DNA of 64,000 nt, taken from contig NC_011726.1 of NCBI RefSeq assembly GCF_000021805.1, forward strand, positions 2,232,001 through 2,296,000, read 5' to 3'. This DNA is from Rippkaea orientalis PCC 8801. Its GTDB lineage: Bacteria > Cyanobacteriota > Cyanobacteriia > Cyanobacteriales > Microcystaceae. A program made the translations under genes and the position numbers. Below the pieces are notes generated by a model. That model was not told where the DNA came from. It made no database searches and saw only the letters and a list, made by a program, of their open reading frames with translations. This document shows positions 51,650 to 64,000 of this stretch, one piece after another; positions within the stretch are counted from its first letter, which is position 1; each line of letters begins with the position of its first letter.

Positions 51650-51723
51650 GGCTCGGTAGCTCAGTTGGTTAGAGCAGGGGACTCATAAGCCCAAGGTCGG
51701 CAGTTCAAATCTGCCCCGAGCCA
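51650..51723 (+). tRNA. tRNA-Met(CAT), elongator type; CAST target
   Basis: A 74-nt cloverleaf with acceptor GGCTCGG/CCGAGCC, anticodon CAT in loop CTCATAA, and T loop TTCAAAT; no CCA is encoded. The 5' half (GGCT...GTAGCTCAGTTGGTTAGAGCA) matches elongator tRNA-Met; tRNA-Ile2 with a lysidine-modified CAT anticodon is the alternative. The anticodon stem has three G-C pairs but A31-G39 and G27-A43 do not pair, which is unusual. The gene is undamaged by the adjacent transposon, whose end lies 9 bp after it. Confidence 0.85.
51667..51684 (+). other. GGTT PAM (51667-51670) and protospacer in the tRNA
   Basis: GGTT in the D loop is the preferred Cas12k PAM type (GTN/GGTT). The bases after it, AGAGCAGGGGACTC (51671-51684), are identical to the homing spacer at 51851-51864; of the first 18 spacer bases 17 match the tRNA. 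The transposon end begins 62 bp after the PAM, within the 60-66 bp known for type V-K insertion. Confidence 0.85.
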
Positions 51724-51732
51724 TACAAAAAT

Positions 51733-51800
51733 TGTACAATCACTAATTATTTGTCATCGGTAACAGATTGTTGTCGTCTTAACAAATTATTTGTCGTTTA
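51733..51800. mobile_element. CAST transposon end, array-proximal, with TnsB-type sites
   Basis: The terminus is TGTACA at 51733-51738, as in known type V-K CASTs. It is followed by repeated AATTATTTGTC words (51745-51755 and 51785-51795, 40 bp apart) with a GTTGTCGTC motif between them, which resemble TnsB-binding sites. The naming left or right differs between papers; this is the end next to the CRISPR array. The five bases before the end (AAAAT, 51728-51732) would be the target duplication, to be found again at the far end. Confidence 0.85.
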
Positions 51801-51840
51801 TGAAAAAAAACAAAACCAAAAAATCTAAAATTGTATATAG

Positions 51841-51864
51841 ACTTGATTAAGAGTCCCCTGCTCT
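51841..51864 (-). CRISPR. Homing spacer targeting the adjacent tRNA-Met gene
   Basis: Read on the minus strand after the divergent repeat, the sequence starts AGAGCAGGGGACTC (51864 to 51851), identical to bases of the tRNA gene at 51671-51684. Three of the next four bases also match, giving 17 of 18. Homing spacers of type V-K CASTs are short and tRNA-directed in this way. The tail beyond the 18th base does not match and may be unprocessed. Confidence 0.85.
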
Positions 51865-51923
51865 CTTTCAATCCACCTAAAATTTATAACTGTAGTTTAT
51901 TTATTTGGGATGATTGTTAAAAC
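51865..51923 (-). CRISPR. Divergent, split terminal repeat of the homing crRNA
   Basis: On the minus strand the first 17 nt (GTTTTAACAATCATCCC) match 13 of 17 bases of the array repeat, and the last 13 (GGTGGATTGAAAG) match 11 of 13. Together they span 59 nt instead of 37, so the middle is replaced by 22 extra AT-rich bases. It starts exactly one spacer length (36 nt) after the third regular repeat. Its AGGTGGATT pairs perfectly with AATCCACCT in the tracrRNA (52360-52352). Confidence 0.75.
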
Positions 51924-52145
51924 TAAGCACTAACAAAGTGCGTTCGTGAGTTTTTGCCCCTTTCAACCTACCCCTTATCGGGATGGCGGTTGAAACAGTC
52001 ATTTTCATTGAGTCACGCAATTACGCCCGCCAAACTTTCAACCTACCCCTTATCGGGATGGCGGTTGAAACCCATCCCAGTTAATAGAGTTGGGTGCACA
52101 GCGTAAAACTTTCAACCTACCCCTTATCGGGATGGCGGTTGAAAC
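51924..52145 (-). CRISPR. CRISPR array of three 37-nt repeats, type V-K
   Basis: Three identical 37-nt repeats lie at 51960-51996, 52035-52071 and 52109-52145; read on the minus strand they start GTTTCAACCGCC and end GGGGTAGGTTGAAAG. That resembles the repeat of the Scytonema hofmannii CAST. Spacers are 37, 38 and 36 nt (52072-52108, 51997-52034, 51924-51959). The order is cas12k, tracrRNA, array, homing unit on the same strand. No source of the three spacers is seen in the window. Confidence 0.95.
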
Positions 52146-52309
52146 CCCTAACAGCTTAATCTCTGATAGGAACTGGGTTCTAAGAACAAATCTGATCGCT
52201 CTCGTCAAAGTTGCCTTATTTCCCATAGAAATTTCAAGAATTAGTCCATCCCTAAATGACTGTAGACCAGTCAATATCTGATTTTCAGAGATCTGATGGC
52301 ACTCTCTGA

Positions 52310-52622
52310 GGTTTTGACCCCGCTTTGTCCCGTCAGAAATACAAAATAAAGAGGTGGATTCCCCCTAGGTCGGGGGTGATTCAGTAGCCATCGCTGTAGT
52401 AAACCCACACCACTTATTGCTGGGAGCGCACCTACCCTATAAAATAAAATTATCAGCTAATTTCAATTTACAGGTTAATCATCCCTAAAAATTAGTATTT
52501 AGGAATCAGCATCAGGGTGGACAGCTACTAGGGTCAGAAAGCACAACTATCTGCCGATAGTCAAACTAACACCTTATTTTTCGCAAATCAGAGGTTCAAG
52601 AATGAACTTAATCTACGGCGCG
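52310..52622 (-). ncRNA. tracrRNA of the Cas12k system
   Basis: The minus strand reads GCGCCG near 52622, then TTAGTTTGACTATC, CTTTCTGACCCTAGTAGCTG, CACCCTGATGCTG, AGGTGCGCTCCCAGCAATAA and GGCTACTGAATCACCCCCGA. All of these blocks occur in the same order in the published ShCAST tracrRNA. A CCCCC...GGGGG hairpin at 52376-52361 is followed by the anti-repeat AATCCACCTC (52360-52351). A possible second anti-repeat (CGGGA near 52330) could pair with ATCCCG of the repeats. The exact ends need RNA data. Confidence 0.88.
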
Positions 52623-52683
52623 ATTACTTAAATCTAAGTATATAAATACTATCTGAAATTGTCAAGGTACGGGAAAAACTTTG

Positions 52684-54522
52684 TTAAGCTGAAAGACGCG
52701 ATTGATAAGCATTTAAAGCCAAAGCGATCGCTTTATCATGGGGTGTTCCCTTGTAGGGTTGTTGGCTAATTTCAAGAACAATCCCTAATTTTGAGGCTTG
52801 TGCTTCAATATTGTCGATAAGTCTGCTGTAACTCCACTGATGCACTTGAACACGGTAGCATTTAGCATAGTTTTTTTGTGCTTCAATGCAGTTAGGGATT
52901 CTTTCCTCAGCTTTGGTTTGAATCTCAGTTTGCACAATTTCTCGCATATCCTCTAATTTGGGAACAACGATGCTTCCTGCTTTGTATTTCTTGGCAAGAG
53001 TAACGATGGCTTTGGTCAGTAGGCGATCGATGTATTCCCCTAATTCTGAGTCTCCGAATTGATTAAAAGCCTCTTTTCGTTGCGCGACGTTACGCTGATG
53101 GGACTGATGCTGTTTTTGTTGGCGTTGACGCTGAATTAAAGGGTAATTATTGCCTAAAAGTTGTTTAATATACTCGATAGTAAGGGTTTTTTGGGTAATT
53201 CCATCCACAACGGCGACAGTTGCAGGTTTATCTACCCCCATTGATACCCCAACGAGAATATTTGATTGACCCCGATAAAGGGGTTGACTGGGACGAGGAA
53301 AGGGATTTTCTAGCTTATCAAGAGTTGATTGTTTCCGTTTAATGAAGGCTTGTTGATTTTTGGTTAAATCACCCTTTTCATTCATAGAAGTGAGAACTTT
53401 AGCGATTTCCTCGGCTTTTTCCTGTTTGACTTCTTCTGTCCCTTCTTGTGTCCATAAACGAGTGTCTAGGGTACATTGCAGGATTAAGCGATGAATGTTC
53501 CAAGGTTGACCTTTTTCATTCCCTTCTTGCCAGAGAATACGCCCAGAACGTAAGGTAAATAAGGCACTAGAATGTTGATTTTTACTGCCTTTCTTTGCTT
53601 GCTGGTCTTCATAAAAGCGTTGAAACCACTTTAATTGTCGTTGATCACAGTAAATTTCAAAGCTTAGGTCACTAATGCCGTTAAATTTAACGCATAATCG
53701 TCCTTTCTCGTTTTTATGCCATGTTAAGTCTTCATTGGTTTCGTAGTTGATAGGAAATGGGATAGACTGGGATTGGATTAATAGTTTATCTTGCCATGAA
53801 CGGGCTTGTGCGGTGTCTTCTGGGTCAGTCTGACAGGCAATAGACAGGGTTTCTAGCCAATTATGATTGGTTAAGTCTCTCCCTTGGGGAAGACGACCTT
53901 CTAATTGTTCTTGTAGTCTATCAATGGCAATTTCGACTTTACGGCGACGTTTTGTAAATTTTTCGGGATCTTCTGGTTTCTGAGGAAGTTTACAGCGATT
54001 TTTGAGCAGATAACATAAGGCTATGTGGGTGAAAGGGTTTTTTTCTTCTTGATAAAGTTGAAAGAGATGATTAAAGAGTTTTTCTGTCTTTTGATGGGTT
54101 TGGAGAATTTCAGAGGCTTTATGGCGAATAGCTTCTAAATTTTGCTGACTTTGCTGAATTAATTCTTCATCACTTTTTAAGACGGTTAACCATCGTCTTT
54201 TACCGTCGAGTTTACGCTGTAATCGTTGTTGGAGTTTTAGCCAAGATTTGAAAATATATTCTACTAAGCTTATTCCAGAGGTATAAAATCGGGCTGGTTG
54301 TCCCAAATAACGGGGATCTTTTTTTAATTTGTCTCCTAATTGCTTAATAACACTTTTTTGAAGCTTTCCTTTTTGTTTCCATTGTTCAAAGTCAGGATTT
54401 TGTGCCACTTTTTGCAGTAATTCGTTGATAAATGGCGTGTTTAAGTCTGCCATCAGTTGCCAGAGGGTGTGACGGATGGGTTCTTTAGCAACGAGACGAC
54501 ATTGAATGGTGATTTGACTCAT
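52684..54522 (-). CDS. cas12k: Cas12k, RNA-guided targeting subunit with inactive RuvC
   Basis: This 612-residue protein starts SQITIQCRLVAKEPIRHTLW and continues as Cas12k proteins do; known ones are about 635-640 residues. In the RuvC I region the catalytic aspartate is replaced (VGVSMGVD; Ser427 at the usual Asp place). An acidic residue remains in VVPKLEDM and Asp596 in PHDKAIALALNAY. Cas12k binds crRNA-tracrRNA and marks insertion sites for TnsB/TnsC/TniQ without cutting. It faces a CvkR-type regulator over a 68-bp spacer. No transposition genes are adjacent. Confidence 0.95.
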   Translation of the reverse strand: MSQITIQCRLVAKEPIRHTLWQLMADLNTPFINELLQKVAQNPDFEQWKQKGKLQKSVIKQLGDKLKKDPRYLGQPARFYTSGISLVEYIFKSWLKLQQRLQRKLDGKRRWLTVLKSDEELIQQSQQNLEAIRHKASEILQTHQKTEKLFNHLFQLYQEEKNPFTHIALCYLLKNRCKLPQKPEDPEKFTKRRRKVEIAIDRLQEQLEGRLPQGRDLTNHNWLETLSIACQTDPEDTAQARSWQDKLLIQSQSIPFPINYETNEDLTWHKNEKGRLCVKFNGISDLSFEIYCDQRQLKWFQRFYEDQQAKKGSKNQHSSALFTLRSGRILWQEGNEKGQPWNIHRLILQCTLDTRLWTQEGTEEVKQEKAEEIAKVLTSMNEKGDLTKNQQAFIKRKQSTLDKLENPFPRPSQPLYRGQSNILVGVSMGVDKPATVAVVDGITQKTLTIEYIKQLLGNNYPLIQRQRQQKQHQSHQRNVAQRKEAFNQFGDSELGEYIDRLLTKAIVTLAKKYKAGSIVVPKLEDMREIVQTEIQTKAEERIPNCIEAQKNYAKCYRVQVHQWSYSRLIDNIEAQASKLGIVLEISQQPYKGTPHDKAIALALNAYQSRLSA

Positions 54523-54590: not shown

Positions 54591-55022
54591 ATGGGAGAAA
54601 CTTTTTTTACCTCTAAGGATGCTGCTAAAATTACGGGGTGTACCCTGCGCCAGTTACAGTATTGGCGAGAAAAAGGGGTTATTGTACCGATGGTGAGTGC
54701 AACGGGGACGGGGAGAAGTGTTTATTATTCTCGTTCTGAGTTGGTGGAGTTGGCAGTTATGGTATATTTGCTGTCGGTGGGATTAACCTTTGAGTCTGCT
54801 TCTGGGGTGTTACAACAGTTAAGGGAACTTGAACCGAATTTTGCTAAAGAGAACAGTCAACGGCGTTTGATGCTGGTTTTTGATACTTCTGAGGGAATAC
54901 TGAAGTTAAAGGATTTTGAACGAGAGAGTGCGATCGCTTTTCTTGATCGAGGTGAAGCAATTATTCCCCTTTGGCTAGAACAAATTCATCAACAGCTTAA
55001 TCAGACGTTACCAATCAATTAA
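54591..55022 (+). CDS. cvkR: CvkR-like MerR-family regulator of the CAST
   Basis: This 143-residue protein has a MerR-type winged helix: FFTSKDAAKITGCTLRQLQYWREKGVIVP, SRSELVELAVMVYLLSVGLTFESASGVLQQL. It lacks the metal-binding cysteines of metal-sensing MerR proteins. Regulators of this type (CvkR) sit divergent from cas12k in many type V-K elements and repress cas12k and the tracrRNA in the studied case. GAGG precedes the ATG. hsdM starts only 14 bp later, so the regulator may be cotranscribed with the restriction genes. Confidence 0.85.
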   Translation: MGETFFTSKDAAKITGCTLRQLQYWREKGVIVPMVSATGTGRSVYYSRSELVELAVMVYLLSVGLTFESASGVLQQLRELEPNFAKENSQRRLMLVFDTSEGILKLKDFERESAIAFLDRGEAIIPLWLEQIHQQLNQTLPIN

Positions 55023-55036
55023 TCATAAAAACATTC

Positions 55037-56605
55037 ATGGCAAAACAGAACGGTAAAACAGTACAAAATAACAGTAATAGCGATAAGTCCTTAGAAAGTT
55101 GGATCTGGGATGCAGCTTGTAGTATTCGAGGGGCGCAAGAAGCGGCCAAGTACAAGGATTTTATTTTACCGTTGATTTTTACTAAGCGTCTTTGTGATGT
55201 ATTTGATGATGAGTTAAATCGCATCGCTGTTAAGGTTAAAACCCGTGAAAAGGCGTTTAAATTGGTGGAAATGGATCAGAATTTGGTGCGGTTTTATTTG
55301 CCTTTAAAACCTGATAATCCAGATGATGCAGTGTGGTCTGTCATTCGTCAGTTATCGGATAAAATTGGGGAGACATTAACGGGATATTTACGAGATATTG
55401 CGAAGGCGAATCCGTTATTAAAGGGAATTATTGATCGGGTGGATTTTAATGCTACGATACACGGCGAAAGGGAATTAGATGATGATCGTTTGTCGAATTT
55501 GATTGAGAAAATATCAGAGAAACGGTTAGGGTTAAAGGATGTTGAACCTGATATTATTGGGCGCAGTTATGAGTATTTAATTCGTAAGTTTGCGGAGTCG
55601 GGAAAGTCAGCAGGGGAATTTTACACGCCGAAGGAAGTGGGCATCATTATGGCGAAAATTATGCAACCACAGCCTGGAATGGCGATTTATGACCCTTGTT
55701 GTGGTTCAGCAGGGTTATTGATTAAATGTCAGTTAGTTTTAGCAGAATCGCAGGAAAAGGGCGAAAAATATGCCCCTTTGCAGTTATATGGGCAGGAATA
55801 CACGGGGGATACTTGGGCGATGGCGAATATGAATATGATTATTCATGATATGGAGGGAAAAATAGAGATTGGGGATTCTTTTCGTTTTCCTAAGTTTAAG
55901 CAAGGGGGAAATTTAGCTCAATTTGACCGAGTAGTGGCTAATCCGATGTGGAATCAAAACTGGTTCACGGAACAGGATTATGATGGGGATGAGTGGGGAC
56001 GGTTTCCCCAAGGGGCAGGTTTTCCGGGTTCTAAGGCGGATTGGGGTTGGGTTCAGCATATTTGGGCTTCTTTACAGCTTCATGGTCAGTCTGCCATTGT
56101 TTTAGACACGGGGGCGGCTTCTAGGGGTTCAGGTAATGCGAATAAGGACAAGGAGAAGGAGGTAAGAAAGTGGTTTGTGGAGAAGGATATCATTGAAGGG
56201 GTGATTTATTTACCTGAGAATCTCTTTTATAATACCTCTGCGCCGGGGATTATTTTGATTTTAAATAAGGCGAAATCAGAAGCAAGAAAGCATCAATTAT
56301 TGTTGATTAATGCAAGTTTAGAGTTTGCGAAAGGTGATCCGAAAAATTATATTTCTGATCAGGGAATTAATCGCATTGTAACGGCGTTTTTGAATTGGGA
56401 GGAACAAGACAAGTTTAGTCGTATTGTTTCTCTGGAGGAAATTGCGAAAAATGATTATAATATTTCTCCTTCTCGTTATATTCATGTGACGGAAGCGGAG
56501 GAGTTTCGCCCTATTGGTGAGATTTTGCAAGAGTTAGAAGAATTGGAATCTCAAGCGGAGGAAACGAATCGAGTTTTAATGCAGGTTTTAAGTAAGTTTA
56601 GGTAG
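55037..56605 (+). CDS. hsdM: Type I restriction-modification methyltransferase subunit HsdM
   Basis: This 522-residue protein has an N-terminal HsdM domain (SLESWIWDAACSIRGAQEAAKYKDFILPLIFTKRLCDVF). The SAM-binding motif I is D219-P-C-C-G-S-A-G and the catalytic motif IV is N302-P-M-W (VVANPMWNQNW) in place of the usual NPPF, a tolerated variant. It adds methyl groups to adenine in the recognition site. HsdS follows after a 1-kb inserted cassette; the last 47 bases of hsdM (56558-56604) recur at 57606-57652. Confidence 0.93.
   Translation: MAKQNGKTVQNNSNSDKSLESWIWDAACSIRGAQEAAKYKDFILPLIFTKRLCDVFDDELNRIAVKVKTREKAFKLVEMDQNLVRFYLPLKPDNPDDAVWSVIRQLSDKIGETLTGYLRDIAKANPLLKGIIDRVDFNATIHGERELDDDRLSNLIEKISEKRLGLKDVEPDIIGRSYEYLIRKFAESGKSAGEFYTPKEVGIIMAKIMQPQPGMAIYDPCCGSAGLLIKCQLVLAESQEKGEKYAPLQLYGQEYTGDTWAMANMNMIIHDMEGKIEIGDSFRFPKFKQGGNLAQFDRVVANPMWNQNWFTEQDYDGDEWGRFPQGAGFPGSKADWGWVQHIWASLQLHGQSAIVLDTGAASRGSGNANKDKEKEVRKWFVEKDIIEGVIYLPENLFYNTSAPGIILILNKAKSEARKHQLLLINASLEFAKGDPKNYISDQGINRIVTAFLNWEEQDKFSRIVSLEEIAKNDYNISPSRYIHVTEAEEFRPIGEILQELEELESQAEETNRVLMQVLSKFR
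56558..56604 (+). repeat. hsdM 3' end, left copy of a 47-nt direct repeat
   Basis: Bases 56558-56604 match 57606-57652 at 42 of 47 positions; the last 28 are identical. The two copies border the DUF559-hicBA cassette. The simplest reading is that hsdM once ran directly into hsdS and the 3' end was duplicated when the cassette came in. Confidence 0.8.
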
Positions 56606-56620
56606 CTGCCCCCTAATTTT

Positions 56621-56685
56621 GCCCCCTAGCCCCCAAACGGGGGAACAAAGAACTCCCCAATATTGGGGCAGGGGGTTGATAAAAT
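56621..56685 (+). repeat. Left 65-nt direct repeat around the DUF559 gene
   Basis: A 65-nt, C/G-patterned unit (cccccta, cccccaaacggggg, ccccaatattgggg, agggggttgataaaat) at 56621-56685 is repeated at 57068-57132 with about five differences. It can fold through CCCCC/GGGGG and CCCCAA/TTGGGG pairs. The two copies enclose the DUF559 gene exactly. Confidence 0.85.
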
Positions 56686-56707
56686 TAATCATTAACAGAA
56701 AATCATT

Positions 56708-57076
56708 ATGAAAGATACCCCTAGAATCAGAGGAACAACCCCAGAAATTGAAGCAGCAGCGAGACGTTTACGGTGTAATCTTACTCCCGCAGAAGCTTAT
56801 TTATGGGAAGCATTACGAGGTAAAAAATTAAAGGGTTTAAAGTTTCGTTGTCAGCATCCTGTTGGGCGTTTTATTCTTGATTTTTATTGTCCTTCTTGTA
56901 AGTTAGCGATTGAGATTGATGGCAGTTCTCATGATACGAAACAAGAGTATGATCAAGTAAGAACGGAAAAACTCGCTCAGTATGGTTATAGGGTTCTAAG
57001 ATTTACTAATGAGGAGGTTATGACTGATTTATCAAGAGTTTTAGCGGAAATTGAAAAGGTTGCTTTTACCCCCTAA
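56708..57076 (+). CDS. DUF559 Vsr-like putative endonuclease
   Basis: This 122-residue protein reads TPAEAYLWEALRGKKLKGLKFRCQHPVGRFILDFYCPSCKLAIEIDGSSHDTKQEYDQVRTEKLAQYGYRVLRFTNEEV, the DUF559 fold related to very-short-patch repair and other PD-(D/E)xK nucleases. The DFYCPSCKLAIEIDG acidic pattern is the likely active site. It sits between two 65-nt direct repeats and ends 9 bp into the second. Such genes are frequent in cyanobacteria and often travel with CCCCCTA-type repeats. Role unproven. Confidence 0.85.
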   Translation: MKDTPRIRGTTPEIEAAARRLRCNLTPAEAYLWEALRGKKLKGLKFRCQHPVGRFILDFYCPSCKLAIEIDGSSHDTKQEYDQVRTEKLAQYGYRVLRFTNEEVMTDLSRVLAEIEKVAFTP

Positions 57077-57132
57077 CCCCCAAACGGGGGAACAAAGAAC
57101 ACCCCAAGATTGGGGCAGGGGGTTGATAAAAT
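57068..57132 (+). repeat. Right 65-nt direct repeat around the DUF559 gene
   Basis: Partner of 56621-56685. It overlaps the last codons of the DUF559 gene and precedes the hicB-like start by about 20 bp, so it also forms the leader of the toxin-antitoxin genes. Confidence 0.85.
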
Positions 57133-57151
57133 GATCAAGGAGAATTAACTG

Positions 57152-57370
57152 ATGAGTCAATCAACAGAAATTGTTTTTTTAGTGGAAGATGCTCCCGAAG
57201 GCGGTTATACTGCTAGGGCATTGAGTGAGTCTATTTTTACGGAAGCTGATGATCTCGAATCTTTAAGGGAAATGGTTAAGGATGCGGTTCATTGTCATTA
57301 TGATAATGTGGAAAGTCGCCCTAAAATTATTCGTTTACATATCGTCAGAGATGAGGTGTTTGCTTCATGA
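57152..57370 (+). CDS. HicB-like antitoxin
   Basis: This 72-residue protein has the degenerate RNase-H-like HicB start (EIVFLVEDAPEGGYTARALSESIFTEADDLESLREMVKDAVHCHY). No separate DNA-binding tail is seen, so autoregulation would need another contact. Its last 4 bases overlap the hicA start, the usual coupled layout. AAGGAG lies before the ATG. Confidence 0.85.
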   Translation: MSQSTEIVFLVEDAPEGGYTARALSESIFTEADDLESLREMVKDAVHCHYDNVESRPKIIRLHIVRDEVFAS

Positions 57371-57606
57371 AACTTCCGAGAGATTTGTCTAGTGATGATT
57401 TCATTAAAAAGCTATCTCGTTTAGGTTATGAAGTCACTCGTCAAACAGGTAGCCATATTAGGCTAACGACTCAGGAAAATGGGGAGCATAATATTACAAT
57501 TCCTGCTCATAATCCTGTTAAAATTGGAACTTTAAACGCAATTTTAAGAGATATTGCTCAACATTTTAGCTTAAGTCGTGATGAGTTATTAAAACGTTTA
57601 TTTTAG
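57367..57606 (+). CDS. HicA-type mRNA-interferase toxin
   Basis: This 79-residue protein has the HicA fold with LSSDDFIKKLSRLGYEVTRQTGSHIRLTT; the catalytic His30 in GSH is intact. The family cuts translated mRNAs until bound by HicB. Order antitoxin-toxin is the reverse of many hicAB pairs. It ends exactly where the right copy of the 47-nt hsdM repeat starts. Confidence 0.88.
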   Translation: MKLPRDLSSDDFIKKLSRLGYEVTRQTGSHIRLTTQENGEHNITIPAHNPVKIGTLNAILRDIAQHFSLSRDELLKRLF

Positions 57607-57652
57607 AGGAAACTAATCACATTGTAATGCAGGTTTTAAGTAAGTTTAGGTA
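57606..57652 (+). repeat. Right copy of the hsdM 3'-end repeat
   Basis: A second copy of the hsdM terminal 47 nt, including bases that would encode its final QVLSKFR and stop. It has no open frame of its own here. hsdS starts 14 bp later, as expected for an original hsdM-hsdS junction. Confidence 0.8.
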
Positions 57653-57666
57653 AATTCTAGTATATT

Positions 57667-59040
57667 ATGAACAAATCAAAAAATACTCAATTAGAACTTA
57701 ATTTGTGTTTAGAGGATGAAAACTCTGGACATGAAAATAAAATTTTAGCTCGTGATTTTCCTCCTGAATGGCAATTAATACCACTTAAAAATGCTGTAAC
57801 TTATATTGATTATGGTTATTCTCACTCAATTCCTAAAATACCTCCTGAAAATGGAATAAAAATTGTTAGTACAGCAGATATTAGTAAAACAGGAGAGTTG
57901 TTATATTCACAAATTAGAAAAGTTGAAGCCCCTTTAAAAACTATACAACGATTAACTTTACATGATGGAGATGTTTTATTTAATTGGCGCAATAGTTCTT
58001 ATTTAATTGGCAAAACAACTATTTTTGAAGAACAATCAGAACCTCATATATTTGCTTCTTTTGTTCTTAGACTGAAATGTGATGAAATAAAATCACATAA
58101 CTATTTTTTCAAATACTTATTAAATTACTATCGCTATTCTGGAATTTTTGAAAGTCTTGCTAGAAGGGCAGTTAATCAAGCTAATTTTAATAAAAATGAA
58201 GTATCAGATTTAATTATTCCCCTTCCCCCAATAGAAGAACAGCGAAAAATCGCCAGTGTATTAACATTAATACAAGAAGCCATCCAAGAACAAGAAAATG
58301 CGATCGCTTTAACAACGGAACTCAAAAAAGCCCTTATGCAAAAGCTATTCACCGAAGGAATTAATAATGAACCGCAGAAAATGACGGAAATTGGTCTTAT
58401 TCCTGAGAGTTGGGAGGTTGTGAATTTAGGTAACCTGGCAAAATTAAAATCGGGTGGTACTCCAAGCAGAAAAAAAATAGAATATTGGGAAAATGGTTCT
58501 ATTCCTTGGGTAAAAACAACTGAAATTAATTATGATTTAATAACCACAACGGAAGAATATATAACGAAAGAAGGACTGGTAAATTCTTCAGCAAAAATGT
58601 TTTCTAAAGGTACTTTGTTAATGGCAATGTATGGACAAGGTGTAACAAGAGGACGAGTAGGAATTCTTGATATTGATGCTACTACTAATCAAGCTTGTGT
58701 TGCTATTATGCCTAATTCAGAGGATAAATTATCAACTAAATTTCTGTATCATTATTTTTCCTATCACTATGAAAAATTAAGAAATCAAGGACATGGTGCA
58801 AATCAAAGTAACTTAAGTTCTACTATTCTAAAAATGTTTCCTATTACATTCCCTAAAATACAAGAACAATTAATAATTATTAATCATTTTGATACATTAA
58901 ATTTAAAACTAGAGCAATCTCATAAAAGAATAACTATTTTACAAGACTTATTTAGTACCCTATTACATCAATTAATGACCGCACAAATACGGGTAGATGA
59001 ACTAGAGTTATCAGTCTTAGAAAAGCAAATTAAGGAGTAA
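57667..59040 (+). CDS. hsdS: Type I restriction specificity subunit HsdS
   Basis: This 457-residue protein has two target recognition domains. The first spans roughly 30-190, and the second starts near 250 with GNLAKLKSGGTPSRKKIEYWENGSIPWVKTTEI. They are joined by the conserved central helix IEEQRKIASVLTLIQEAIQEQENAIALTTELKKALMQKLF. A similar helix closes the chain. It sets the DNA sequence read by HsdM and HsdR. The two recognition domains vary freely between strains, so specificity cannot be read from sequence. Confidence 0.92.
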   Translation: MNKSKNTQLELNLCLEDENSGHENKILARDFPPEWQLIPLKNAVTYIDYGYSHSIPKIPPENGIKIVSTADISKTGELLYSQIRKVEAPLKTIQRLTLHDGDVLFNWRNSSYLIGKTTIFEEQSEPHIFASFVLRLKCDEIKSHNYFFKYLLNYYRYSGIFESLARRAVNQANFNKNEVSDLIIPLPPIEEQRKIASVLTLIQEAIQEQENAIALTTELKKALMQKLFTEGINNEPQKMTEIGLIPESWEVVNLGNLAKLKSGGTPSRKKIEYWENGSIPWVKTTEINYDLITTTEEYITKEGLVNSSAKMFSKGTLLMAMYGQGVTRGRVGILDIDATTNQACVAIMPNSEDKLSTKFLYHYFSYHYEKLRNQGHGANQSNLSSTILKMFPITFPKIQEQLIIINHFDTLNLKLEQSHKRITILQDLFSTLLHQLMTAQIRVDELELSVLEKQIKE

Positions 59041-59046
59041 ACACTC

Positions 59047-59307
59047 ATGAATCCATCAACATACACCCCTGAAACCCTGATCGAATCCATTAAACAACTA
59101 CCGCAAGAATCCTTACCAGAACTGGCTCAATTTGTCGAATACTTACACTATAAAAATCAACAACAAAACCTAACCCATGAATCATCAATAACCTTAGAAC
59201 AAACTGAACAACTCACAGAAGAATTATTAACCGAAATGGGGGATAACTTACCGAGTTTATCAGATTATGCCATCAGTCGTACAGGAATTTATGAGGAGCA
59301 TCCTTAA
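59047..59307 (+). CDS. DUF2281-like small protein
   Basis: This 86-residue protein starts TYTPETLIESIKQLPQESLPELAQFVEYLHYKN, typical of small DUF2281/antitoxin-like proteins in cyanobacteria. An acidic helical tail follows. It lies 6 bp after hsdS. It may be a solitary antitoxin; no toxin partner is adjacent. Confidence 0.6.
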   Translation: MNPSTYTPETLIESIKQLPQESLPELAQFVEYLHYKNQQQNLTHESSITLEQTEQLTEELLTEMGDNLPSLSDYAISRTGIYEEHP

Positions 59308-59343
59308 GCTATAAATAAAACACAACTATTTGGAGAAAAAACC

Positions 59344-59595
59344 ATGATTAATCAAGAAGAAATTACCATTAAAGTGTCGCCAGAACTTGCCCAAGCTTAT
59401 CGCCAAGCGAGTCAAGAAACTCAAGAACAAATAGGACTAAAAGTTAATGCCGTATTAAGCTTAGAACTAGAAAATAGAAGAAAAGAAGCAGTAAAAAAAC
59501 TCTCAATACTGATGGATAAAGCCAGCGAAGAAGCACAAGCCAATGGCTTAACCCCTGAAATTTTAGAGGAAATCTTAGCTAATGAAGAAACTTAA
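59344..59595 (+). CDS. Putative antitoxin of the PIN-domain toxin
   Basis: This 83-residue helical protein (EITIKVSPELAQAYRQASQETQEQIGLKVNAVLSLEL) has an RHH-like beginning. Its last 14 bp overlap the toxin gene, the mark of a coupled antitoxin-toxin pair. Family not otherwise named. Confidence 0.65.
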   Translation: MINQEEITIKVSPELAQAYRQASQETQEQIGLKVNAVLSLELENRRKEAVKKLSILMDKASEEAQANGLTPEILEEILANEET

Positions 59596-60007
59596 ATTTG
59601 TTCTGGATACTAACATTATTATCAGTGCTTTTTTGTTTCAGAATAGCAAGCCTCGTCAAGCTTTAGAATTGGCTAAAAATCATCATCTTATTTTACTATC
59701 AACCAACATCATTCAAGAAATGAGAACCGTTATTCAAAGACCTAAGTTTGACCGCTATATTTCTTTATCTCTTAGGGAGGAATTGTTAGATACTCTCATA
59801 GAATCATCCTTAATGATTGATCCTGATGAAATCGTTACCGAATGTCGAGATCCTAAAGATAATAAATACTTAGAACTAGCAATTACAGGTCAAGCAAAAT
59901 GTATTATTACAGGAGATGAAGACCTATTAATTTTAAATCCCTTTCGAGAAATTCCTATCATGACAGTTCAAGAATTTTTAACAACTTATGAGGAAGTCAC
60001 GGAATAG
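59582..60007 (+). CDS. PIN-domain toxin
   Basis: This 141-residue PIN protein of the TIGR00305 type has the acidic residues Asp9 (VLDTNI), Glu46, Asp93 and Asp112 (TGDEDLL). Such proteins cut RNA, often tRNA or mRNA. It overlaps the preceding antitoxin-like gene by 14 bp and ends one base before a small repeat-peptide frame. Confidence 0.87.
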   Translation: MKKLKFVLDTNIIISAFLFQNSKPRQALELAKNHHLILLSTNIIQEMRTVIQRPKFDRYISLSLREELLDTLIESSLMIDPDEIVTECRDPKDNKYLELAITGQAKCIITGDEDLLILNPFREIPIMTVQEFLTTYEEVTE

Positions 60008-60130
60008 ATGCTAACCTCAACACCGAATCTGGACAGTAGTACAAAAGCTCAAGACAGCTTATCTGGACAGTCAAAAATACCTAATCTGGACAGTAGTACA
60101 CAAAATCAGGACAGCTTATCTGGAAAGTAA
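60008..60130 (+). CDS. 40-aa peptide made of two 19-residue repeats
   Basis: ATG at 60008 directly follows the PIN toxin stop and reads 40 residues: MLTSTP, then NLDSSTKAQDSLSGQSKIP and NLDSSTQNQDSLSGK. The DNA repeat period is 57 bp, a multiple of three. The words TCTGGACAGT or TCTGGAAAGT recur up to 60180, beyond the stop. It may be a real small gene or a non-coding tandem repeat. No homologue is known to me. Confidence 0.3.
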   Translation: MLTSTPNLDSSTKAQDSLSGQSKIPNLDSSTQNQDSLSGK

Positions 60131-60183
60131 TTATACTGATTCCAGACTATCTGGAAAGAAAGATCAGTCTAATCTGGAAAGTA
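60026..60183. repeat. TCTGGACAG-type tandem repeat before hsdR
   Basis: Two near-perfect 57-bp units start at 60026 and 60083, with further TCTGGAAAG words near 60119, 60150 and 60173. They fill most of the 274-bp gap between the PIN toxin and hsdR. They could bind a regulator of hsdR; no known site is matched. Confidence 0.65.
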
Positions 60184-60281
60184 ACCAAAACTCAATACAC
60201 TAACCCTGATAATCCCTTAGATCGTAATCAATCTTATACAGCCCGCTAACTACTTTATTGTATAACTTTACTCAAAAAATT

Positions 60282-63209
60282 ATGCCTAAACCAACAGAAT
60301 CAAAAACCGTCCAAGATCGCATTTTAACCTATGCCCAAGAAATGACCCCACAATGGCGTTATGTATCCCGTAGCGAAGCAGAAACCAGAAGGGGATTTAA
60401 TAACATTGACAATAATGATATTCAAGTTCAAGCCCAACAAGCCTCTTTATATTTCGATGATCTACTTTATCAAAAAATTCAACAATTTAATCCTACCTAC
60501 AACGAAACTCAACAAGAACTAATCACAAAATTAAATAGCCTTCCTACAGATATTTATGGAAATCGTGACTTTCTTAACTATCTTCGCAATCAAGTTAAAT
60601 ATTTTTGTCCTGTTGAAAAGCGAGAACTTGACTTAACCCTAATAAACTACGAAGATCCCACTCAAAATGAATACGAAGTTACCGAAGAATATTATACCCA
60701 TAATAGAAAAGATGGCATCAGAGAAGATATTGTCTTTTTAATTAATGGGATTCCCATCCTTGTCATTGAATGTAAAAATGCTGATAAAATTGAAGGGATT
60801 GCATTAGGAATAGACCAAATAAGACGCTATCACCGAGAAGCCCCTGAGTTATTTGTCCCTCAAATGTTATTTACAGCTACCGAAGCTATTGGCTTTTCTT
60901 ATGGGGTAACATGGAATTTAGTCAGGAGAAATATTTTTAACTGGAAAGATGAACAAATTGGACAACTCGAAAACAAAATCAAAACCTTTTGCCATCCCTA
61001 TATTCTCCTAAAATTCTTACTAAATTATATTATCTTTGCTGAAAAAGACGAAACTCTCCAAAAATTTATCCTCAAACAACATCAAACTATTGCCATTGAA
61101 AAAGTTATCCAAAGATGTCATGATACTGAAAAATCACGGGGATTAGTTTGGCATACACAGGGAAGCGGTAAAACCTTCACCATGATTAAAATTGCCGAGA
61201 TGCTATTTAAAGCCCCAGATAGTGAAAAACCCACCATTATTTTAATAATAGATCGCAATGAACTCCAAGATCAACTATTGCGAAATCTCAATAACTTAGG
61301 GGTTAATAATATTCGTCATGCTAACCGTATTAAAACCTTAATTGAACTGCTAGAAAATGACTATCGGGGCATCATTATCACCATGATTCATAAATTCCGA
61401 GAAATGCCCACTGATGTTAATCTTAGAAATAATATTTATGTCCTAATTGATGAGGCACACCGCACCACAGGAGGAGACTTAGGAACATATTTAATGGCAG
61501 GTTTACCCCATGCAACTATTATCGGCTTTACAGGCACACCTATAGACAAAACCAATCAAGGAAAAGGAACATTTAAAACCTTTGGCACAGATGACGAAAA
61601 AGGCTATTTACATAAATATTCTATCGCTGAAAGTATCGAAGACGGCACAACTTTACCCCTTTATTATAATCTTGCTCCCAATGAAATGTTAGTTCCTGCT
61701 GAGATTATGGATCAAGAATTTCTTGACTTAGTAGAAACAGAAGGCATTAATGATATTGCAGAATTAAATAAAATTTTAGATCGCGCTGTCAACTTAAAAA
61801 ACTTCCTGAAAGGCGATCAAAGAGTCGATCAAGTTGCCAAATATGTCGCCCAACATTACACCAAAAATGTTGAACCATTAGGATATAAAGCCTTTTTAGT
61901 CGCCGTAGATCGTCCTGCCTGTGCTAAATATAAGCAAGCATTAGATCGTTATCTACCCCTGGAATATTCTGCCGTTGTTTATACAGGGAATAATAACGAT
62001 ACAGAAGACCTTAAAACCCATCATATTGATGATAAAACCGAAAAACAAATCAGAAAAAACTTTGCTAAATTTGGAGAATATCCTAAAATCTTAATTGTTA
62101 CCGAAAAACTCTTAACAGGATACGATGCACCGATTTTATATGCCATGTATCTTGATAAACCCATGCGAGATCATACTTTATTACAAGCGATCGCTAGAGT
62201 CAATCGTCCCTATGAAAACGAAACAGAAGAAATGGTTAAACCCCATGGTTTTGTCTTAGATTTTGTCGGCATTTTTGATAAATTAGAAAAAGCTTTATCC
62301 TTTGACAGTCAAGAAGTCAATGCTATTGTTAAAGATTTAAGTTTACTGAAAAACTTATTTAAAATTAAAATAGAGCAGTTAATCAAAAATTATTTAACAC
62401 TGATTCAACATAATTTTAATGATCAAGATGTCGATCATTTACTCGAATATTTTCGAGATAAGGAACGACGAAAAGCCTTTACAAAAGATTATAAATCCTT
62501 AGAAATGCTCTATGAAGTCATTTCCCCCGATGCCTTTTTACGCCCCTATCTCAATGAGTACGGAACACTCTCTGGTATTTATCAAGTGATTCGTAATGCT
62601 TACAGTAAAAGAGTTTATGTAGATCGAGAAGTCAAGCGAAAAACCGACCAAATTGTTCAAAATAATATTGCAACAACAGCAATTCCGACTGTAACCGATT
62701 TTATTGAAATTAATGCTCAAACCATTGAAACTATTCAAAATAAAGGAGGTGGTAAAACAACTAAAGTTATTAACTTAATCAAAAGTATTGAAAAAACAGC
62801 AGAGGAAAATAATGATGATCCTTTCTTAATTGCAATGGTACAGAGAGCTAAAGCGATTCAAGAACAATTTGAAAATCGCCAAACAGATACCCAAGAAACC
62901 CTTGATTTACTGCTTCAAGCCGTTAGAGAAAACGAACAACGTAAGCAAGAACAATCTGCCAAAGGATTTGATAGTTTAAGTTTTTTTGTTTATCAAGCTC
63001 TAGAAAATGCAGGAATTGATAACCCTGAAGATATGGCTCAAGAAATTAGACAACACTTTATTGAAAATCCGAACTGGAAAACCAGTGAAGGCGAATTAAG
63101 AGAATTAAGAAAAAATGTAACTTTCTCCATCTATACAGAAATAGATGAATTAGAAAAAGTCACAGCCCTTGTTGAGCAACTATTTACCCTATTACAACAA
63201 AATCACTAA
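60282..63209 (+). CDS. hsdR: Type I restriction endonuclease subunit HsdR
   Basis: The ATG at 60282 gives 975 residues (a TTG at 60258 is less likely). The N-terminal nuclease domain has GIREDIVFLINGIPILVIECKN (PD-ExK). The helicase core has Walker A QGSGKT near residue 293 and DEAH at 390-393 (LIDEAHRTTGG), with GFTGTPI and IARVNRPYE as later motifs. It pumps DNA and cuts unmethylated DNA far from the recognition site. All key motifs are present. With hsdM and hsdS it makes a complete system. Confidence 0.94.
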   Translation: MPKPTESKTVQDRILTYAQEMTPQWRYVSRSEAETRRGFNNIDNNDIQVQAQQASLYFDDLLYQKIQQFNPTYNETQQELITKLNSLPTDIYGNRDFLNYLRNQVKYFCPVEKRELDLTLINYEDPTQNEYEVTEEYYTHNRKDGIREDIVFLINGIPILVIECKNADKIEGIALGIDQIRRYHREAPELFVPQMLFTATEAIGFSYGVTWNLVRRNIFNWKDEQIGQLENKIKTFCHPYILLKFLLNYIIFAEKDETLQKFILKQHQTIAIEKVIQRCHDTEKSRGLVWHTQGSGKTFTMIKIAEMLFKAPDSEKPTIILIIDRNELQDQLLRNLNNLGVNNIRHANRIKTLIELLENDYRGIIITMIHKFREMPTDVNLRNNIYVLIDEAHRTTGGDLGTYLMAGLPHATIIGFTGTPIDKTNQGKGTFKTFGTDDEKGYLHKYSIAESIEDGTTLPLYYNLAPNEMLVPAEIMDQEFLDLVETEGINDIAELNKILDRAVNLKNFLKGDQRVDQVAKYVAQHYTKNVEPLGYKAFLVAVDRPACAKYKQALDRYLPLEYSAVVYTGNNNDTEDLKTHHIDDKTEKQIRKNFAKFGEYPKILIVTEKLLTGYDAPILYAMYLDKPMRDHTLLQAIARVNRPYENETEEMVKPHGFVLDFVGIFDKLEKALSFDSQEVNAIVKDLSLLKNLFKIKIEQLIKNYLTLIQHNFNDQDVDHLLEYFRDKERRKAFTKDYKSLEMLYEVISPDAFLRPYLNEYGTLSGIYQVIRNAYSKRVYVDREVKRKTDQIVQNNIATTAIPTVTDFIEINAQTIETIQNKGGGKTTKVINLIKSIEKTAEENNDDPFLIAMVQRAKAIQEQFENRQTDTQETLDLLLQAVRENEQRKQEQSAKGFDSLSFFVYQALENAGIDNPEDMAQEIRQHFIENPNWKTSEGELRELRKNVTFSIYTEIDELEKVTALVEQLFTLLQQNH

Positions 63210-63912: not shown

Positions 63913-63926
63913 TTTTTGCTTCTCCA

Positions 63927-64000
63927 TCATTTCCCGAAACGAGACAAAACACCTCTGACACCACCCATTAACCCAAAGCGCAGGAAACTGAAACCTTGCG
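63927..64000 (-). CDS. Possible C-terminus of a minus-strand gene
   Basis: The minus strand from the window edge reads QGFSFLRFGLMGGVRGVLSRFGK and a TGA at 63927-63929. Only about 24 codons are visible, so identity is open and the frame may be accidental. Confidence 0.25.
   Translation of the reverse strand, partial: QGFSFLRFGLMGGVRGVLSRFGK

What the first reader, a model, noticed from the sequence alone, without database searches (positions are those of the whole stretch)
51650..51864. Homing crRNA of a type V-K transposon aimed at the neighbouring tRNA-Met gene
The minus-strand spacer starting at 51864 reads AGAGCAGGGGACTC, identical to 51671-51684 in the tRNA gene; 17 of the first 18 bases match. 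The four bases before that site are GGTT, a preferred Cas12k PAM, and the transposon terminus TGTACA begins 62 bp after the PAM, within the 60-66 bp reported for type V-K insertion. Spacer, PAM, spacing and end all agree, so this insertion appears to be explained by its own guide. tRNA homing is established for the type; this tRNA-Met case and its sequence are read here.
Basis: partly seen in the sequence, partly recalled or inferred. Interest (0 to 1): 0.92.

Follow-up and report, generated by a model that had tools for sequence, protein, structure and literature searches.

The report
Transposon guide aimed at tRNA-Met gene
A cyanobacterial jumping element carries a 17-letter RNA guide that matches the tRNA gene beside it and explains why it sits there; this is a known type of system at a rarely seen target, although this copy has lost most of its transposase genes.

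Summary
The minus-strand guide from 51864 matches 51671-51688 in a tRNA(CAT) gene at 17 of 18 positions, the PAM is GGTT, and TGTACA begins 62 nt after it. The best other match in the window is 13/18; 0 of 500 shuffled guides reach 17/18. The element is a type V-K CRISPR-associated transposon: Cas12k (924 bits), CvkR, array, truncated repeat, anchor guide, end. Homing to tRNA genes by 17-nt anchor guides is published (PMC9938897, PMC11406308), so the kind is known. Added here: (1) tRNA-Met is a rare target: 1 of 103 surveyed guides, plus cassettes in two other families; 12 of 388 genomes of the order have TGTACA 55-69 nt after this protospacer's start, control 0. (2) The expected far end does not hold: beyond the window tnsB and tnsC are broken and an apparently older element is fused on, so this copy looks unable to move by itself. 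(3) The mismatch, guide position 15, is the weakest position of anchor guides in general (86 of 103 match; neighbours 97 and 101), a testable hint about how Cas12k reads its target.

The parts
51650..51723 (+). tRNA(CAT) gene, the attachment site
   Evidence: ARAGORN; Rfam
51667..51670 (+). PAM GGTT
51671..51687 (+). anchor protospacer (17 nt)
51728..51732 (+). AAAAT, candidate target-site duplication on the tRNA side
   Evidence: partner at the far end stands 3 nt off
51733..51800 (+). tRNA-proximal transposon end (TGTACA...) with TAATTATTTGTC-type repeats at 51744 and 51784 (second with one difference); called left end in PMC9938897
51848..51864 (-). 17-nt anchor (homing) guide AGAGCAGGGGACTCTTA
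51865..51879 (-). truncated repeat R* TAGGTGGATTGAAAG (11 of 15 identical to the 3' end of the array repeat)
51960..52145 (-). CRISPR array: three identical 37-nt repeats, two spacers of 37 and 38 nt
   Evidence: Rfam CRISPR-DR15
52150..52680 (-). tracrRNA region (stretch between array and cas12k that resembles L009/L010; exact ends not fixed)
   Evidence: by eye; fold z -3.74
52684..54522 (-). cas12k, 612 aa, open over its whole length
   Evidence: NCBIfam V_Cas12k 924 bits; PDB Cas12k E 2.4e-240
54591..55022 (+). cvkR-type MerR regulator, 143 aa
   Evidence: Pfam MerR_1
55037..63209 (+). cargo: type I restriction-modification genes (hsdM-, hsdS-, hsdR-like) and small ORFs
63913..64000 (-). 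3' part of tniQ (continues to window-scale 64407, L006)
   Evidence: Pfam TniQ; tblastn

Best explanation
This is the tRNA-side end of a type V-K CRISPR-associated transposon that homed to a tRNA(CAT) gene with its own anchor guide. Mechanism: the truncated repeat R* and the 17-nt guide form a crRNA with tracrRNA and Cas12k; the complex pairs with the tRNA protospacer behind a GGTT PAM (positions 1-14 and 16-17 pair; 15 does not) and, through TniQ, TnsC and TnsB, placed the array-side end 62 nt away, outside the tRNA gene, which stays intact. Shown by sequence: guide, PAM, spacing, end, genes, and recurrent ends at the same distance in other genomes. Inferred: expression, crRNA processing, and that this very guide directed this insertion. 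The present copy is probably immobile by itself: of tnsB only an N-terminal part is left, tnsC is present only as two fragments on either side of a fusion, and the far side is joined to the remains of an apparently older element of the same family.
For: Match, PAM and spacing. Cas12k, CvkR and TniQ. Same rule on 123 Cas12k-linked regions: 103 have a guide after GAAA[G/C] with a GTN PAM at its target, 90 of 103 in tRNA genes, 64 of 103 exact over 17 nt; matches fall to chance level at position 18 (24 of 103). 12 of 388 genomes of the order (own one included) have TGTACA 55-69 nt after the start of this tRNA(CAT) protospacer, 9 of them at 60-63; reversed-pattern control 0. Cassettes aimed at the same tRNA in two other families: G546 (mismatch at 15, TGTACA at 62) and G479 (mismatch at 10, terminus decayed). 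In the same genus four of six genomes have no TGTACA in the range searched (G001, G003, G004, G006) and two have one (G002 at 62, G005 at 67). Transposase damage and fusion.
Against: One mismatch inside the guide, not a wobble pair. Far terminus degenerate (TGTATA), no adjacent duplication. No empty site with both own flanks was found: the gene right of the far end did not turn up in the relatives' stretches held. R* resembles the repeat only 11 of 15. Of the 12 genomes with an end at this tRNA only two (own, G546) show a guide to it in the flank held, at most about 1.6 kb; a search of 11 genomes, among them G002, G005 and G008 which have such an end, found beside the tRNA genes only places that by eye do not follow a truncated repeat, so those ends are remnants without a guide. 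No RNA data.
Confidence: 0.93

Rival explanations
1. The tRNA likeness is an ordinary integrase-type attachment remnant (a copied piece of the tRNA gene), not a guide.
For: tRNA genes are common integration sites of many elements (PMC11406308, passage).
Against: The copy is inverted, follows a truncated CRISPR repeat, ends after 17-18 nt, has a PAM at its target, and the neighbour genes are Cas12k, CvkR and TniQ; 102 other rows of the survey show the same layout.
Confidence: 0.02
2. The guide is a tRNA-Lys(CTT) guide, or derives from one, and the present insertion at tRNA-Met was off-target or followed a switch of target.
For: Position 15 T gives CTCTTAA, as in tRNA-Lys(CTT); the Lys guides of L088 and L145 share a GACTCTTAA tail; own tRNA-Lys(CTT) matches 16 of 18.
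Against: Positions 7 and 8 fit Met only; the own tRNA-Lys site has no GTN PAM (CGGT); G546 has G at position 15, which fits neither tRNA.
Confidence: 0.06
3. The insertion was directed by another element's guide in trans (the genome holds two further cas12k genes and two other tnsB-tnsC-tniQ sets), and this guide came later by recombination.
For: Extra cas12k at G000:C3:3090392 and 3101442; open tnsB-tnsC-tniQ frames at 3075387-3078468 and 3093652-3097095. Anchor guides are scattered over the Cas12k tree, so cassettes may be exchanged (many forks unresolved).
Against: The one guide to this tRNA found in the genome (up to 3 mismatches over 18 nt) lies in this element.
Confidence: 0.05

Closest known systems
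Type V-K CAST with anchor spacer at a tRNA gene (the 118 systems of PMC9938897, among them AnCAST; ShCAST)
   Same: Cas12k, CvkR, array, R*, 17-nt anchor guide, GTN PAM, distance within 46-82 nt, tRNA gene pointing at the element (section 6 of PMC9938897 read)
   Different: Target is tRNA(CAT); one mismatch at guide position 15; tnsB and tnsC broken; fused to a second degenerate element
Nearest relatives found: CASTs of Crocosphaera MAGs MO_202.B2 and MO_133.B10 (L009, L010)
   Same: Cas12k 74 and 78% identical; tracrRNA region and array-side end alike by eye
   Different: Their guide CGAGTCCAGTTACGTCC is that of tRNA-Val(GAC) (16 of 17 in L009); their repeat differs by eye
tRNA(CAT) cassette of G546 (L216/L262), another family
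   Same: Guide AGAGCAGGGGACTCGTA, same PAM, TGTACA at 62, mismatch at position 15 too
   Different: Another base at position 15; terminal repeat differs in several letters; no cas12k on the 1.8-kb stretch held

Membership tests
Type V-K CAST | Cas12k effector | tested here: met
   NCBIfam V_Cas12k 924 bits, Cas12k structures
Type V-K CAST | tnsB, tnsC, tniQ present and intact | tested here: not met
   tniQ matches residues 6-165 of 167; tnsB only residues 17-227 of 567; tnsC as two fragments, residues 209-276 and 100-221 of 290. Presence in part is met, intactness is not: a degenerate copy
Type V-K CAST | array plus truncated repeat and ~17-nt anchor guide matching just outside the end | tested here: met
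   one mismatch of 17
Type V-K CAST | GTN PAM, end 46-82 nt away | tested here: met
   GGTT, 62 nt
Type V-K CAST | TGTACA-type inverted ends on both sides | tested here: inconclusive
   exact on the tRNA side, TGTATA on the far side, which probably belongs to another element
Type V-K CAST | 5-bp target duplication | tested here: inconclusive
   AAAAT stands 3 nt outside the far terminus. Of 20 other elements tried, tnsB was located in 15; 5 of these 15 have the repeat exactly at both termini
Type V-K CAST | CvkR-type or Arc regulator divergent from cas12k | tested here: met
   MerR_1 at 54591-55022
Type V-K CAST | tracrRNA | tested here: inconclusive
   stretch resembling relatives (by eye), fold z -3.74; no Rfam match for it up to E 1
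Type V-K CAST | guided transposition activity | not testable with these tools
   needs experiment

The most novel reading that the evidence does not exclude
Position 15 of the 17-nt anchor guide is a relaxed, perhaps unread, position of the Cas12k guide-target duplex: natural homing guides drift there while 16 and 17 stay paired. In 64 distinct guide/target pairs 15 of 45 mismatches fall on 15, against 6 on 14, 2 on 16 and 3 on 17; collapsed to 31 target families it is 9 families, and 14 of 10000 shuffles reach that maximum over positions 1-17 (112 of 10000 over 7-17). All eight tRNA-Ala(CGC) guides found mismatch there, with three different bases. The window's guide is one instance.
Probability: 0.5. 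Interest if true: 0.55.

Novelty: new member of a known kind. Interest (0 to 1): 0.42.

Why it matters
The case explains a transposon's place by its own RNA, at a target that I did not find named for this type: no paper of the library holds both 'cas12k' and 'tRNA-Met' (other spellings not searched, supplements of PMC9938897 not readable here). The survey behind it turns natural homing guides into a mutational scan of Cas12k pairing: a sharp 17-nt limit that equals the 17-bp heteroduplex of the ShCAST structure (PMC9876797, legend passage seen), an excess of wobble-compatible differences (23 of 30 transition-type ones), and a soft spot at position 15. Anchor guides are scattered over the Cas12k tree, which fits exchange of homing cassettes and the published remark that even close relatives use different sites (PMC11406308, passage).

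Tried and rejected
Empty site with both own flanks: not found; the gene right of the far end did not turn up in the relatives' stretches held. A 3-nt offset of the target duplication at the far end, seen in two own elements (main: TGTATA GGT AAAAT; tRNA-Gly mini element: TGTAAA ATG GTTTC): I thought of donor bases carried along, but of 15 other elements with a located tnsB 5 have the repeat at offset 0, one at 3 (AAAAA), one at 5 and 8 none, so no rule; left unexplained. Idea that tRNA-Met guides always mismatch at 15: rejected, G479 matches there and mismatches at 10. Idea that position 15 matters because it falls in the anticodon: rejected, Pro(CGG), Thr(TGT), Lys(CTT) and Phe guides match at 15, while Leu(GAG) and some non-tRNA targets mismatch (place of the anticodon judged by eye). 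Array spacers: no match in the plasmid collection; phages were not searched. Guide with R* in 386 genomes of the phylum: only the own genome.

Limits of the survey: 120 regions were fetched of the Cas12k places listed, chosen by me for a matched C-terminus and contig length; with OWN, L009 and L010 this makes 123. L087 and L009 have identical guide and target and look like the same locus. 20 of 123 gave no guide, among them short contig ends and some with a tRNA beside them. Acceptance was up to 4 mismatches in a tRNA gene, up to 2 elsewhere. The 64-pair set is the 63 plus L216; L258 was found afterwards and is not in it. The Cas12k tree rests on 102 columns of the C-terminus with 52 of 99 inner forks open; its 17 changes for 17 position-15 loci is rough, and other positions also show nearly one change per locus. 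Of 103 rows, 67 have a TGTACA 40-70 nt away; the rest have none there. In the strict set (tRNA target, TGTACA at 40-70) position 15 matches in 50 of 61, 14 in 58, 16 and 17 in 59.

Full report
What is there. The tRNA gene is at 51650-51723. On the minus strand a guide starts at 51864, AGAGCAGGGGACTCTTAATC, against 51671 on, AGAGCAGGGGACTCATAAGC. The PAM is GGTT and the terminus TGTACA starts at 51733, 62 nt from the first protospacer base. The guide follows TAGGTGGATTGAAAG, a truncated repeat that shares 11 of 15 letters with the 3' end of the 37-nt array repeat. The repeat scores as Rfam CRISPR-DR15. Behind the array come a tracrRNA-like stretch, cas12k and a MerR/CvkR gene, then type I restriction-modification cargo. 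I call the tRNA-side end array-side; PMC9938897 calls it the left end.

More than chance. The next best match of the 18-nt guide in the window is 13 of 18, and 0 of 500 shuffled guides reach 17. In the whole genome the tRNA site is the only other place within one mismatch. A tRNA-Lys(CTT) gene has two mismatches, but the letters before it are CGGT, not a GTN PAM.

Beyond the window. The window is G000:C3:2232001-2296000. On the window scale, tniQ runs over about 63913-64407, a tnsC C-terminal piece lies at 64425-64628, an N-terminal tnsB piece at 66350-67183, and then the far-end region. That region breaks off at ATTTTGTTAAGATGACAAAT and is joined, with ACAAAT shared, to a tracrRNA-like piece (90% over 42 nt) and a cvkR fragment (84% over 75 residues). 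After further cargo come a tnsC middle piece at 72902-73261 and, after a second copy of the same far-end letters, the terminus TGTATA at 73325. I read this as two elements of one family in tandem at one site, the distal one older, both damaged. The far terminus then belongs to the older insertion, which would explain why no AAAAT stands directly beside it. That history is inferred.

The same site elsewhere. In five of six congeners the peptidase gene and the tRNA keep their order (in G005 the match is split over contigs); four of six have no TGTACA in the range searched, G002 has one at 62 and G005 one at 67. Over 388 genomes of the order, 12, the own one included, have TGTACA 55-69 nt after the start of this protospacer, 9 of them at 60-63, and the reversed control pattern finds none. 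By eye most of the twelve go on with letters like a V-K terminal repeat, several strongly decayed. Three genomes in three families carry a homing guide to this tRNA: the own one, G546 (f20) and G479 (f13). Two other hits of the guide pattern (G151, G660) have no tRNA in the stretch held and no proper truncated repeat by eye. In 11 relatives searched for the 14-nt core, three of which have an end at this tRNA, the places outside the tRNA genes do not follow a truncated repeat by eye.

Survey of anchor guides. From Cas12k searches of 388 and 217 genomes I fetched 120 regions downstream of cas12k and added the own one and two relatives (123). 103 have a guide after GAAA[G/C] whose first 17 letters match a site downstream on the other strand with a GTN PAM; 90 of these sites lie in predicted tRNA genes. 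64 are exact, 29 have one mismatch, 10 have two. Match counts at positions 1-17 are 86-103 of 103; at 18-24 they are 24-37. The limit of 17 equals the 17-bp heteroduplex of the ShCAST structure (PMC9876797, legend passage seen) and the 17-nt anchor spacer of PMC9938897 (section 6 read). Only the own element of the 103 uses a CAT tRNA.

Position 15. The own mismatch falls on the weakest position of all guides: 86 of 103 match at 15, against 97 at 14, 101 at 16 and 100 at 17. With G546 added there are 64 distinct pairs with 45 mismatches, 15 of them at 15. Shuffling mismatch places within pairs never reached 15 in 10000 draws; after collapsing to 31 target families, 14 of 10000 reached the observed maximum of 9, or 112 of 10000 if only positions 7-17 are allowed. 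All eight tRNA-Ala(CGC) guides found differ at 15, with A, T or G; they stand in more than one part of the tree. Of 30 transition-type differences 23 are of the kind that leaves a wobble pair (binomial p 0.009; pairs are not fully independent); the own one is not of that kind. I take this as relaxed reading at 15, not as selection for a mismatch.

Switching of targets. The own Cas12k groups with the Crocosphaera CASTs (SH-aLRT 93), whose guide CGAGTCCAGTTACGTCC is that of tRNA-Val. In the own genome an element end of the same kind stands 61 nt after that very sequence in tRNA-Val (L007), with a cvkR-like gene 88% identical to the own one over 117 residues, and a pair of ends lies beside tRNA-Gly (L008). 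So elements of this kind have used at least three tRNA genes in this genome.

Verdict. It is a new, partly decayed member of a known kind at a rare target. No paper of the library holds both cas12k and tRNA-Met; this library lacks most subscription papers, the 2021 paper on V-K homing that I tried was not held, the related preprint is known to me only from the reference list of PMC11406308, and supplements were not available. The part a specialist may not know is the position-15 pattern; some searches listed 25, 9 and 9 papers, and no title or abstract start shown names it. Of those I read only passages of PMC9938897 (one section whole), PMC11406308 and PMC9876797.

Noticed in passing
L008 (G000:C3:816950-817047): Two facing V-K-type ends only 98 bp apart beside tRNA-Gly(TCC): a miniature remnant, with GTTTC before one terminus and 3 nt outside the other.
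   Followed up: partly
L007 (G000:C3:4157228 on): V-K-type end 61 nt after the tRNA-Val(GAC) protospacer start, followed by a Piwi-domain (Argonaute-like) gene, a further ORF and a cvkR-like gene with an altered C-terminus; the own-genome Cas12k search has no hit there.
   Followed up: partly
G000:C3:3048500-3104700 (L055, L056, L048, L049): Apparent tandem cluster of CASTs before tRNA-Pro(CGG): two divergent cas12k genes, two open tnsB-tnsC-tniQ sets and at least one broken copy of them.
   Followed up: partly
L006:9319-9333 (window-scale about 73318-73332): Far terminus TGTATA followed by GGT and then AAAAT: the expected duplication stands 3 nt off.
   Followed up: yes
window 57152-57606 and 59047-60007: Small paired ORFs inside the restriction-modification cargo that look like toxin-antitoxin pairs (HicB/HicA-like and PIN-like; recalled, not searched).
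   Followed up: no
L010:12950-13900: In a Crocosphaera MAG the CAST end runs straight into other TGTACA-bearing DNA with an open frame that looks like a tnsB (by eye), and no tRNA gene was found in the stretch held.
   Followed up: no
window 51650-51724, minus strand: Weak Rfam match, below its gathering score, of the antisense of the tRNA to Plastid-ycf2 5'UTR RNA (25.9 bits, gathering 65.7).
   Followed up: no
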